Assembly: GCF_026914185.1 (NCBI RefSeq)
Contig: NC_070569.1
Coordinates: forward strand, 1,240,001-1,304,000
Length of the DNA stretch: 64,000 nucleotides
From: Puccinia triticina
Taxonomy: Eukaryota; Basidiomycota; Pucciniomycetes; Pucciniales; Pucciniaceae
Reading direction: 5' to 3'
How positions within the stretch are numbered: the stretch's first letter is position 1; each line of letters starts with the position of its first letter. The notes under the pieces were generated by a model. That model saw only the letters and a program-made list of their open reading frames with translations, did no database searches and was not told the DNA's origin. The translations under genes and the position numbers were made by a program. This document shows, in pieces, positions 42,644 to 48,161 of this stretch.

Positions 42644-45600
42644 GGGGTGAATGATTTTTACAAACTGTGTTTTACAATGCTACCCCATTGTAAAGCGGGG
42701 GCATTGTAAAAATGCAAAAATACATGCATTTAATTAGTTTTACAATTTATGTCGTCCCAACCGCGCAATGTAAGCTCACAGGATGTAAATTACATTTTGT
42801 AATTCACACCCGGGTGACCTGTAATCTTTACTTTTACGGTCTGCGCTGTTACATTGCATGTTACAGTGCATGTAAACCTGTACATAACCTACCAAACAAT
42901 TAGTATTACAATACCTTAGCTTACAACCTCTCAGACTTGCAGCCCATCCAAGCTCTGGGAAGCTTATCTCACCCCCCTAGATAGCTTATATCTCCACAGT
43001 GACGGCCTAGGTTAGGGCTTGACACAACCATCTTCCAGCTGGTCAGTCGAGAGATTCTAGGTTTCTTTGTCAGCCTGATTGATCACTTTTTTTCGGACTT
43101 TCCCACAGGTATCAACAACCTTAATAGAGCTCCTGATACGTTAATAGACATCAATCCTGATATATTCCAATAATCTGCACGCCTAATACCTGATAAGCTA
43201 TAACCTTGCTTATTCTTTAATACATATCCTTTGATACGGCGGCCATGGCCCGCAAAAAGAAAAACACCGCCCGCAACCCTCCTCCCACTCCTCCTCTCAA
43301 TCATCCGACATTATCTGCTACCCCCACGATATCGGCGCCCAAAATAGTGAAGACCCCCGCAATATCCATTCCCAATTCCGGAAACACACAGACTTCCAAA
43401 ACCTCCGCCCACCCTGAAATTGAAAAGCCAAATCCTACCGAACCTGAAGACAAGCCAAACTGGCAGTACCCTACCGCCATGGATGAAGTCTTCAATACTT
43501 TTATTGATCATGGTTGCCGGTTAGACAGGCAGGGGTATCCGCTTTACCCGAATGGATCTACCACTTTTGTCCTCACCGCCGGTACCGAGATTGTGAATTT
43601 TGGATCGGTTGGGTTCACCAAGAGATCCAGCAACGACACCAAGTCCGACGAGTGGCAAGTCACGCGATATTACTGCCGTGGTGTTTTACAATGCGATGAG
43701 AATGGTTGTGATTATGCTGGCCCCCCGCCAACTGGACACGGTAAAATTGAAGAGCTTCTCAGCACGTAAGTCCTTAGTTCCCTCTCATTCATTACAACAT
43801 CAGGACTGAATGCAAACTTTTTTCTTCATTTCAGTAACCCCTCATGCAAAGGGCTTGCAGGTCGATGCCCAGGGAAGATCCGCTGGCAAAGCTGCTCGGG
43901 AACTCAATGTTGATTCGATATCCACAAGAAAACTGGATGGGGTCTCCTCCGACACCGAGGTAATCACAATCATCGGTGGCCATCGTCGAAGAAACCAGAC
44001 CCCTTGGCAAAGAAGGATCTAGTTGAAACTGTCAAAAAAAATCCTAAGGCATCCGCGCTCCAGCTCAAGGTTTGATTTTTTTGTTTCTGCCCAGCTCCCC
44101 CTCCCTCCAATTTCATTTCACCCAGATAAGCTGACCTTTAAAATATTTTCCGATCAAAATATAGATTGGTAAAGCCGGTGGGCCTGGCGAGCCAAGTGAC
44201 AGTGTTGTTAACATCCATGAATCCCTCGGCCACTCGGACCGGCTTTGTCACCTTCGTCGTCAGATACTTCAGCAGATCGATTTTGGTTCAGGGAAGGGTG
44301 TTAATGATAGTAGTGATAGGTTCATGCACGACCTTTTACAATGGCAGCTGTTGAGTAATTTTATTTTTGAATCGATTTGTCTACATTTAAATTTGCTAAC
44401 TTTACAATCTAATGATCTAATTTGACAGGAACGGCATGGAAACCATATCGATTGCGTGCAACGCAGGACATGAACACATCACCTTCCAGACTGAGTGGAT
44501 GTCTCAGAGGCTTCTGGATCGTCGCGAAGACAACAACAATCTGTACTCGGGCGGCTTGATCTCGGACGTCACTTACCGCTTCTTTGCCACAGGTTATCTG
44601 CTCACAACCTCCATGTACTGCGACGAAATTTCTCGATGGATTCCCGTCCAGCTCAGCTGGATACGTGGGCTGAGTGAATCGTACTACAAAGTCCACTTCT
44701 CTGTCCTTTTCCGCCAATTCCTCATCCCCTCACTCCTGCAAAGCGAGCGCGAGAACATGGCGCGAAGTGTTGTGGATTTCTCCAAAGCTCAACAATCTGG
44801 ATTTGTGGCGGCGTACATGGATGTTTTTGGCAAAACCAAACGTGAGGAAGCCATGAAGAAACTGAAGGGATGCCGCGAGCACTTCCGACAATCAGTGACA
44901 AGGGTCAAGCGGAACCGGGCGGTCATCATGCCTGATGAGCAGGTTAGTTCTGGTTTGTTTTCTTATTTGAGACGTCAACACTAGCTTACATTTAATCTCA
45001 CTTTAGGCTTTATTTGAAGCCAAGTGTCTCGCCCTGCTGCAGCCATGTGAAAAAGGTGGGCCAACCCACAACAAGAGAATCGATGAGATGCGGCGCAGAT
45101 TCCCCAAGGTCAAGGCTTGGCTTGACTGGTGGACTATGGCCGATGTCGAATCGATGCTTTTCCCCAGCCGCCGCAAGATGCTCGAGGACTGTCCTAACGG
45201 CAATGATCAGCTCCCAAGTTCTACTAATGCTCAGGAGAGCATGCACCGAGTCTACTACATGTTCAGGTAGGTTCGGTTCCTTGTCTTTTCATCTTAAATC
45301 TGGTTTGGAGATAAAAAAAACGCTGACTTGATTGATTGATCAGTTCTGGAAAGAAGGCTTTGATTCCAGGTTTTGCCGAGCTCTTTGCATTTGTCAAAGA
45401 TTTGGAGAAGGACCACGAGCTCACTATGCGTGGCATCCCCATCCGGTATGGGATCAAGCCAAAGAACCAGCAAGACATCGCCCACTCAATTGGTTGGATC
45501 AAACCTACCAAGCGGCAGAGGGCCGCAATGAACAATGGGCGCCCTCCAGACACCACCCAAGCCCTTGTCGATCATCCAACCAAACGAGTAAAGCTCGGCA

Positions 45601-48161
45601 GGCCCCCAAAATCTCTTAACATCAACAGGGCGATGCACACAACCCTCATGTCGTACGCTGCCTCAAAGGATTCGCTAACACGGAATCGATGTTGGTTGGC
45701 GGCTGCGTTGGACTCCCTTTATGCAATCTACAGCCCTCTTTGGCTCCAAAGCCCCGGCGGGAAAAATACCAGTCTATTCCACACTCTTGTCTCCCATTTT
45801 ACTTCCCGGACCACCAATGAGCTCATCCAGAACAAGAATCTCAAATCGATCCTCACTCGTGGATCAAACAAACTATTCGAAGCGGCTAGGAGCCTCCATC
45901 CTGACTCCTTCATCCCGGGTTCCTTTGCATCGTGCGATTTCTTCATGGAAATCATCTTGGATCCAAAAACGAACTCGTCGGAGGTCCTCAAGAGTCTGTT
46001 TTCCATTCAAGAAACTCGAGAATTCTCTTGCCCCCGGAAGATTCACAAGAAGCCAATCGATCATCCCCGAGGAGATCGCCGCTTGGTGGCCCTAAAGGTC
46101 ACTAACTCTATGTTTGAAGCCAATGCGATCAACTGCGCCGACGCTGGGCTTCTGATCACCCGGTGGTCAACTTCTGGACTGGCTGGAACTTCCGGTCTAC
46201 AATGCTAGAGTTGTGGTGCCGAGCGATCCAAAAAACCCCGTCGAAGTAAGCCTTTGGAGTGTGAAGACAATCCCTCCCCCAGCAACTTCCTAGAACAAAC
46301 ATCAATCATCTCATTCCCCGATGGCAAATCACCCCCTCACCTTTACTTTCAAATCGACTCGGCAACAATCATCGATGAACAGAAACAGGTTGAATTCATG
46401 GGTGAGATGAATTGGCCTTTCAAGCTCACCATATCGGGGGAGGTATACACACTCATGTCGCGAGGATATTGGGGAGATGGTCACTATTGGGGAAAGGTAC
46501 TGCGAACCGTTTGAGGAGTTACCGGGATTTGGCTACACAATGACTGTGTGAATGCCGGCTACGCTCAGATGGTCGACACCGTCCCCGGAAAGATCAGTGG
46601 AGCTCACCCAAATACCAGCTGGCTTCTTTACTCGCGAGAGTGGACAGACAATGAAGCTACTTTTGTTGACCAAAGTATTGAGAGGATCCGCCGCGATAAC
46701 CCCACAATCTCCTTGGGTTTTCCTTTCACACACATGAAGAGCCTGTTGAAAATATCTTACGATGGTGAAGCTACCGTGGACTCTTTGAAACCAGCCGAAC
46801 CGGCAATCATCAGAAACAAATCTACCAAGAACCTGAAGGAGAAAATCTCGGACTATTCATCTGATTCCCAACATTCCAGCTCTGACAATTCCAGCGAAGA
46901 TTCCACTGAGGTTAGCGGCGAAGAAACTGGAGAAGATTCCAGTGAAGATGGTGAGCAACATGATGCTCCAGGCGATCCTTTGAGTCCACCAAGCAAACCA
47001 ATCAAGATCCTTCTTTGTCTGAAGAAGGCTCAGCCGGTTTCTACCAAGCCGAAACCTCAATCCGAAGAAGTGGAATCTCGTGCACCAATGATCAACCCCA
47101 CTGAAAAGCTCCCAGCCCGGCGTGGCCGCCCTCCAAAGGTCCGCCCGGTTGTTCAGACTGCTCAGATTGGCGACCCTTCCCATCCGGACCACAGTGATCA
47201 TGACACCGGACCCAAACACCCAGCTTGTGACCGTGCCTCAGATAATCAACCAATGCAGAAATCCACAGCTGCAAATAAACCGACCGGGAAGCGAGGACGA
47301 CCTAGGAAGGAGGCTGCTGAAGCAAACCGGTTGAACTTTGTGTCTGCCCCGTTAAACGATTCGGATTGGGAGCGCATTACGGCACGCGCGGCTGCCAACT
47401 GGAAATCTCACTGGAACATCAAGAAAGAAAAGTATGCGGTGACCCGGAAAAATCAACATGCTCAATCGGCCAGCCAACCAGCACAATCGGTGATTGGCAA
47501 GGAGGATCAACCTCATCAAATGGCGAGCCAACCTGCACCTCGAAAAGGTGCAGGTGGGCCATTGGCGGCGAGACCGACAAGAGTAGGGTTGCGCAGGTCC
47601 TCGAGGGGTACCACAGGTGTTTGATTCGCCTGTTTTGATTTATTGTGCTTTCTTCTCCCCATCATTTCTCCTCTGCCTCCTTGCTTTTTACTTGGGCTTC
47701 TTTTTAAGTCATCTGATTTCACTATTGTTCTCCCTCTGATACGTGGCGGTTTTGCTTTGTTTTGATTTTTTTCTTGGCCATAGGGCCTTTTTTTGCAAGG
47801 CAATGCAAAATTGCCCGCCTGCGGAGGGATATGTAATTTTACATTACTTTTTTTACAATGGGCCCCACTTGGTAAAGCAATTAATTTGCAAAATTAATTG
47901 TTTTGCCTCTCTGGTGCACCATTGCAATGTCAGATTTTGCAATGTCTGGGCGTGGTAAGAATGACATGGTAAATTTGTACATAAAAAGGGATCATGTGCA
48001 AATCTACAAATTAGTTTTTACATTCTCTGGTTTTGCAATGCCCTCAATTGTGAGCAATTTTGTAAAATTATTTGTTTTGTGGATAATGTGTAATTTTGCA
48101 ATGTTATCATTTTACAATGTCCTTACATTGTAAAAGAGGAATTGTAAAAATCAACAGCCCC
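42644..48161 (+). mobile_element. Mutator-like (MULE) DNA transposon, 5.5 kb
   Basis: A perfect 9-base target duplication ATATTCAAC lies at 42635-42643 and 48162-48170, the size expected for Mutator-like elements. The ends are inverted: GGGGTGAATGATTTTTACAA at the left pairs with GGGGCTGTTGATTTTTACAA read from the right. Further TTTTACAATG/CATTGTAAAA words form sub-terminal hairpins. It carries one multi-exon gene (43245-47624). The insertion falls in an intron of the surrounding secreted-protein gene. Confidence 0.9.
43245..47624 (+). pseudogene. MULE transposase with GCM1-type finger, AT-hooks and USP-like domain (decayed)
   Basis: Exons inferred at 43245-43765, 43835-44069, 44165-44349, 44429-44943, 45007-45266 and from 45344 on. 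Order of parts: a Pro-rich N-terminus; a WRKY/GCM1-like zinc-binding region (YYCRGVLQC, NPSCKGLAGRCPG, LLRHRGNHNHRWP); a transposase core (GLISDVTYRFFATGYLLTTS, NAQESMHRVYYM); an AT-hook (KLGRPPK, near 45590); then a region with cysteine-protease boxes of the ubiquitin-specific-protease kind. These are NRCWLAAALDSLYA with Cys at 45690-45692, GDGHYWGKV with His at 46482-46484, and WLHND before SWLLYSREW. Two more AT-hooks follow (RRGRPPK, KRGRPRK). Damage: TGA at 43911-43913 and 46512-46514, and frame changes near 46160 and 46310. Zinc finger and TSD support MULE; the protease assignment is from motifs. Confidence 0.75.

What the first reader, a model, noticed from the sequence alone, without database searches (positions are those of the whole stretch)
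43245..47624. Transposase gene fused to a ubiquitin-specific-protease-like domain and AT-hooks
Downstream of a GCM1-type zinc finger and a transposase core, the same gene shows a USP-style Cys box (NRCWLAAALDSLYA). A His box (GDGHYWGKV), a WLHND segment and a closing SWLLYSREW follow, in the order and spacing style of peptidase C19. Three AT-hook motifs accompany it. Plant MULEs carrying Ulp1-type SUMO proteases are known. I know of no described Mutator-like family with a USP-like protease, which would let an element strip ubiquitin from host factors or from its own transposase. This copy is decayed, so intact relatives are needed.
Basis: partly seen in the sequence, partly recalled or inferred. 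Interest (0 to 1): 0.88.

Follow-up and report, generated by a model that had tools for sequence, protein, structure and literature searches.

The report
Rust transposase carrying ubiquitin-protease-like domain
A family of jumping genes in rust fungi makes one protein that joins a DNA-cutting transposase to a protease domain shaped like the enzymes that remove ubiquitin or SUMO tags, suggesting the element edits such tags on itself or on its host.

The parts
42635..42643 (.). left target-site duplication ATATTCAAC
   Evidence: exact match to 48162-48170
42644..48161 (+). whole MuDRF-type element, 5,518 bp
   Evidence: 98.5-98.8% identity to two sister insertions stops at about these ends; ends and TSD
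42644..42716 (+). left terminal inverted repeat
   Evidence: 65-nt arms about 71% complementary
43245..43765 (+). exon 1 (inferred): start codon, first part of GCM zinc domain
   Evidence: GT donor and match to relatives' protein models; GCM similarity
43835..44069 (+). exon 2 (inferred): rest of GCM domain; in-frame stop at 43911 in this copy
44165..44349 (+). exon 3 (inferred): linker to transposase
44429..44942 (+). exon 4 (inferred): transposase with catalytic Asp 44565-44567 and Asp 44775-44777 and C-x2-H motif 44871-44882
45007..45266 (+). exon 5 (inferred): transposase with catalytic Glu 45235-45237
45344..47624 (+). exon 6 (inferred): end of transposase, AT-hook-like motif, USP-fold domain, tail; in-frame stops at 46206 and 46512 in this copy
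45684..45725 (+). Cys box, catalytic Cys 45690-45692
   Evidence: Cys 30 of 30 in the 30 best-scoring copies
46473..46499 (+). His box, catalytic His 46482-46484
   Evidence: His 28 of 28 aligned, 2 without
46530..46544 (+). WLHND segment, third triad residue Asn 46539-46541
   Evidence: position is Asn or Asp in 34 of 35 aligned relatives
45588..45620 (+). AT-hook-like motif between transposase and protease
47115..47318 (+). two C-terminal AT-hook-like motifs (47115-47147 and 47286-47318)
   Evidence: Pfam E 0.28 for 47286-47318
48089..48161 (+). right terminal inverted repeat
48162..48170 (.). right target-site duplication ATATTCAAC

Best explanation
This is a decayed copy of a MuDRF (Mutator-superfamily) DNA transposon. 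Its single protein runs: GCM zinc domain for binding DNA, DDE transposase, AT-hook-like linker, USP-fold cysteine isopeptidase, disordered tail. Shown here: the architecture, the predicted fold, the conserved triad and the purifying selection. Inferred: the domain is an active isopeptidase that removes ubiquitin-type modifiers in cis, most likely from the transposase itself (escaping turnover) or from chromatin and repair proteins at the element's ends, and so raises transposition. Which modifier it cleaves is open.
Against: No sequence-level match to any USP: Pfam PF00443 was not among the matches of the 32 relatives scanned at E<=10, a profile search of the PDB found none, hhalign against seven pieces of host USPs was not significant. 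The usual oxyanion Asn five residues before Cys is not conserved (Asn in 3 of 34; role recalled). Second CxxC cysteine varies (29 of 37). dN/dS pairs share sequences, several are saturated (dS up to 3.1), and frames were chosen for being open. No activity, expression or transposition data.
Confidence: 0.65

Rival explanations
1. The domain is a USPL1-like protease aimed at SUMO (or another non-ubiquitin modifier), a counterpart of the Ulp1 domains of plant MULEs that arose independently.
For: Best Foldseek match is USPL1-SUMO2, E 2.0e-11. Cys box CWL as in USPL1 NAYALCWLDC instead of CYMN of a host USP. Aromatic residue five before His in 38 of 38 and fixed 12-residue spacing in 37 of 37, matching USPL1 Tyr451-His456 and its missing blocking loop (PMC8983731 passages); a host USP has His eight before. 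Ser-x-x-Phe/Leu/Tyr in the thumb (Ser 36 of 38; Phe 17, Leu 7, Tyr 4 of 38), matching USPL1 Ser332-Phe335 by hand alignment.
Confidence: 0.35
2. The domain is a dead enzyme kept as a binding module for a ubiquitin-type modifier or a protein partner.
For: USP-fold proteins without activity exist, for example PAN2, an entry of which is among the Foldseek hits (lack of activity recalled). Oxyanion Asn at -5 not conserved.
Against: Cys 26 of 26, His 24 of 24 aligned and Asn/Asp 25 of 25 aligned in open copies; third triad position is Asp or Asn in 34 of 35, as expected of an active triad.
Confidence: 0.1
3. The protease belongs to a separate neighbouring gene or is a gene-model artefact.
For: No transcript evidence was available; 3 of the proteins with a complete transposase have no USP match (P0060-P0062, 550-575 aa).
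Against: One uninterrupted 762-aa frame holds the transposase end and the whole domain in a sister copy; 22 of 22 proteins with both domains keep the order; 124 of 150 transposase exons have the USP exon downstream, 111 of them at 300-600 bp.
Confidence: 0.03

Closest known systems
MuDRF elements (Cantu et al. 2011, PMC3164196; passages read)
   Same: One protein with GCM domain and DDE transposase, 9-bp TSD, found in Puccinia and Melampsora
   Different: The passages mention no protease and the word ubiquitin occurs 0 times in the main text; the USP-fold domain is what is added here
USPL1, SUMO-specific isopeptidase (PMC8983731; passages)
   Same: Best Foldseek match; CWL Cys box; aromatic residue five before His; Ser-x-x-Phe pattern
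   Different: Tyr, not Phe, after His; no clear Arg324 equivalent; fused to a transposase
Ubiquitin-specific proteases, peptidase C19
   Different: Not detected by Pfam; second blocking loop missing by spacing; Gln-x-Asp-x-x-Glu thumb motif replaced (hand alignment); -5 Asn not conserved
MULEs with Ulp1 SUMO protease domains in plants, hydra and lancelet (cited in PMC2836005, passages)
   Same: Mutator transposon carrying a protease of the ubiquitin/SUMO pathway
   Different: Ulp1 is a different fold with His-Asp-Cys order (recalled)
IS5-like transposase plus peptidase C19 in Trichomonas vaginalis, XP_001314237.1 (stated in PMC2836005; sequence not examined here)
   Same: Transposase and C19 in one protein
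   Different: Different transposase type (transposase_11 domain); a protist
VTD and OTU proteases of Helitrons (PMC9741609 passages)
   Same: Deubiquitinase domain within a transposon protein
   Different: Rolling-circle elements; VTDs have an Asp-x-His active site

Membership tests
MuDRF / Mutator superfamily | 9-bp target-site duplication | tested here: met
   exact 9 bp in window copy, L031 and L032, 3 of 3 examined
MuDRF / Mutator superfamily | terminal inverted repeats | tested here: met
   65-nt arms about 71% complementary
MuDRF / Mutator superfamily | DDE triad and C-x2-H motif | tested here: met
   Asp 10 of 11 aligned, Asp 12 of 12, Glu 12 of 12; C-x2-H 12 of 12; that this motif marks MULEs is recalled
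MuDRF / Mutator superfamily | GCM DNA-binding domain | tested here: met
MuDRF / Mutator superfamily | RNase H-like transposase fold | tested here: inconclusive
MuDRF / Mutator superfamily | Pfam MULE model | tested here: inconclusive
   1 of 32 members, E 0.059
MuDRF / Mutator superfamily | direct match to the Repbase MuDRF sequences | not testable with these tools
   Repbase not held
Peptidase C19 (USP) | USP fold | tested here: met
Peptidase C19 (USP) | Cys, His, Asp/Asn in this order | tested here: met
   Cys 33 of 34, His 37 of 37, Asp/Asn 34 of 35 aligned
Peptidase C19 (USP) | Pfam UCH sequence model | tested here: not met
   not among matches at E<=10 of 32 relatives or of 7
Peptidase C19 (USP) | oxyanion Asn five before Cys | tested here: not met
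   position 10 of P0004 is mixed, Asn in 3 of 34 aligned; role of this Asn recalled
Peptidase C19 (USP) | second blocking loop before the His | tested here: not met
   fixed 12 residues from Tyr266 to His278 in 37 of 37, aromatic at -5 in 38 of 38; judged from spacing and the model's short turn, not from a superposition
Peptidase C19 (USP) | cleavage of ubiquitin | not testable with these tools
   needs enzyme assay
USPL1 (peptidase C98) | aromatic residue at -5 and no second blocking loop | tested here: met
   against residues named in PMC8983731
USPL1 (peptidase C98) | Phe directly after catalytic His | tested here: not met
   Tyr in 35 of 37, Phe in 2
USPL1 (peptidase C98) | four zinc-binding Cys in fingers | tested here: inconclusive
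   Cys128 38 of 38, Cys186 37 of 38, Cys189 29 of 37; I identified no fourth conserved Cys
USPL1 (peptidase C98) | SUMO cleavage | not testable with these tools
   needs enzyme assay
Ulp1-type (C48) protease of plant MULEs | His-Asp-Cys order | tested here: not met
   order here is Cys-His-Asp/Asn; Ulp1 order recalled
VTD deubiquitinase | Asp-x-His active site | tested here: not met
   third residue follows His by 19 residues; VTD definition from PMC9741609

The most novel reading that the evidence does not exclude
Rust MuDRF transposons carry, built into the transposase, a USPL1-like isopeptidase that acts on SUMO (or a modifier other than ubiquitin). Mutator elements would then have gained modifier-removing activity at least twice from unrelated folds: Ulp1 in plants and animals, a USP fold in rusts. 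The fusion would predate the split of Puccinia and Melampsora, and removing this tag at the element would be a requirement of Mutator transposition that element lineages keep meeting.
Probability: 0.33. Interest if true: 0.8.

Novelty: new variant of a known kind. Interest (0 to 1): 0.63.

Why it matters
Why transposons keep picking up ubiquitin or SUMO proteases is an open question, raised for Ginger, Helitron and plant MULE elements (PMC2836005, PMC9741609). Here is a large family in which the domain sits inside the transposase, has kept its triad across two rust genera, and is constrained as an enzyme should be. It gives many natural variants for testing whether the protease acts on the transposase or on the host. 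It also shows that such domains can be missed because sequence libraries do not detect them.

Tried and rejected
Sequence-only detection of the protease failed at every level tried: Pfam on the window pieces and on 32 and 7 relatives, NCBIfam on 4, PDB by phmmer and by profile, hhalign against seven pieces of host USPs (the Cys box aligned in register but without significance). A Pfam GCM search of the genome found nothing, also in the control genomes, so it says nothing. None of the 37 PF00443 stretches in the genome lies within 12 kb of the 136 family places. In searches for relatives all proteins that carry a species name are Puccinia or Melampsora (six of the 44 carry none), but these searches need shared five-residue words, so absence elsewhere is not shown; the MuDRF elements reported from other Basidiomycota and Naegleria were not examined for a USP domain. 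Viral structure library: the named matches at E<=0.001 include ubiquitin hydrolases of large viruses, not pursued.

Copies without a visible protease: of the 26 transposase exons lacking a scored USP exon, 8 were fetched; 5 have USP matches, 3 (L079, L082, L083) have none within about 3.5 kb and look truncated or decayed. The other 18 were not examined. Considered and rejected: a host gene captured by one element, since many subfamilies and two genera carry it; an OTU, Ulp1 or VTD domain, by fold and order of residues.

Dropped rows and weak spots: dN/dS used 26 frames chosen because they are open (6 of L001-L030 plus 20 others, of 136 places), three of them near-identical. Of 20 pairs, two near-identical ones (dS 0.016-0.017) gave 0.39 and 0.86 and are set aside as too short of changes; in the tail two pairs with dS under 0.05 gave 2.17 and 1.53, one had no changes, and tail stretches of the L058-L077 set are only 40-64 codons. 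One search used 38 of 65 proteins (domain coverage above 80%) for residue counts and 22 for trees; under midpoint rooting Melampsora is not one clade in the protease tree. One search scored 135 of 214 candidates, 150 of 182. Literature lists were capped (20 of 45 shown; 25: 20 of 31; 28: 20 of 406; 66: 12 of 154; 74: 15 of 380).
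Full report
What is there. The gene lies in a complete DNA transposon at 42644-48161. Two sister insertions elsewhere in the genome (L031, L032) are 98.5-98.8% identical to it over this stretch. All three are flanked by exact 9-bp duplications: ATATTCAAC in the window, CTATTTTAA and ATTATATAG in the others. The ends carry inverted repeats (65-nt arms, about 71%). Six exons with five GT-AG introns are inferred from the protein models of relatives. 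The window copy has in-frame stops at 43911, 46206 and 46512. Of the two sister copies one has no stop in any of the six inferred exons and the other has one.

Which organism. The genome holding the window has 122.8 Mb in 18 contigs. The best named proteins are from Puccinia triticina, so it is a Puccinia, probably that species; this is inference, as identities to P. triticina proteins were only 44-67%.

Is it kept? In 38 proteins covering more than 80% of the domain, Cys is kept in 33 of 34 aligned, His in 37 of 37, and the third position is Asp or Asn in 34 of 35. In the 30 best-scoring genomic copies, decayed or not, Cys is kept in 30 of 30 and His in 28 of 28 aligned, 2 lacking it. In 26 open copies, Cys 26 of 26 and His 24 of 24 aligned, 2 lacking it. 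dN/dS of the domain is 0.10-0.23 in the 18 of 20 pairs with dS above 0.3; the tail gives 0.43-0.83 in the 7 pairs with tail dS above 0.3. The frames were chosen for being open and the pairs share sequences, so this is not a random sample.

Is it part of the transposase? The Cys-box exon matches at least 136 places and the main transposase exon at least 150. Of the 150, 124 have the former downstream on the same strand, 111 of them at 300-600 bp; none has it upstream; 125 of 136 USP exons have a transposase exon upstream. Of 8 of the 26 exceptions fetched, 5 carry USP matches and 3 look truncated or decayed. In 22 of 22 proteins with both domains the order is the same; both trees set 15 proteins (14 named Puccinia, 1 unnamed) apart from 7 Melampsora, and distances agree (r 0.93; 0.78 within the 15). 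Three proteins with a complete transposase (P0060-P0062) end before the protease. Named relatives come from P. triticina, P. graminis, P. striiformis, P. coronata, Melampsora larici-populina and M. americana.

Ubiquitin or SUMO? The USPL1 paper (PMC8983731; passages) says that USPL1 lacks two blocking loops, has Tyr451 (five before the catalytic His456) where ubiquitin USPs have His, Phe335 where they have Glu, and Phe after His where they have Tyr. The rust family has Phe or Tyr five before His in 38 of 38, with constant spacing in 37 of 37, and Ser-x-x-Phe/Leu/Tyr in the thumb (register set by hand), and a CWL Cys box as in USPL1. But it has Tyr after His in 35 of 37. The mixture leaves the substrate open. 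I give ubiquitin and SUMO similar odds.

How it may work. Shown: one protein with DNA-binding, DDE and conserved USP-fold parts, the last under selection. Inferred: the transposase brings an isopeptidase to the element's ends, where it removes a ubiquitin-type tag from the transposase or from chromatin or repair proteins. A role in the repair system was proposed for the Ulp1 and OTU domains of Ginger (PMC2836005, passages), and protection from degradation for Helitron VTDs (PMC9741609, passages).

Novelty. Fusions of transposon proteins with Ulp1, OTU and VTD are known, and one with C19 in Trichomonas is stated in PMC2836005. A survey of MULEs across eukaryotes (PMC6446971) and one of arthropod MULEs (PMC13359780) have 0 occurrences of ubiquitin, protease or GCM in the main text. 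A screen of fungal TE fusions (PMC10799480) mentions neither GCM nor Puccinia. Searches of the library (several lists capped) showed no report of a USP-type domain in a Mutator element; MuDRF is named in one paper there. Two papers that I recall as relevant (Babu 2006; Iyer 2014) are not held, so an earlier mention cannot be excluded.

Noticed in passing
window 42644-48161: Of 33 substitutions private to the window copy against two sister copies (5,487 columns), 24 are G:C to A:T and 19 of these lie in CpG, a pattern expected from deamination of methylated cytosine, hinting that the host methylates the element.
   Followed up: partly
window 42176-42709 and 48180-48841: The element starts inside a 177-aa open frame, with further open frames just right of it; none has a Pfam match over cut-off, so it may have landed in a gene.
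   Followed up: partly
L082: A transposase copy whose frame runs on past the AT-hook-like motif into unrelated sequence instead of the protease.
   Followed up: partly
genome G000: 37 stretches matching the canonical USP model PF00443, presumably exons of the fungus's own USP genes, give a ready comparison set for the origin of the transposon domain.
   Followed up: partly
P0040, P0052-P0055, P0058: In several Melampsora relatives the residue before the third triad position of WLHND is Tyr, Phe or Ala instead of His, and the one after it is Glu.
   Followed up: no
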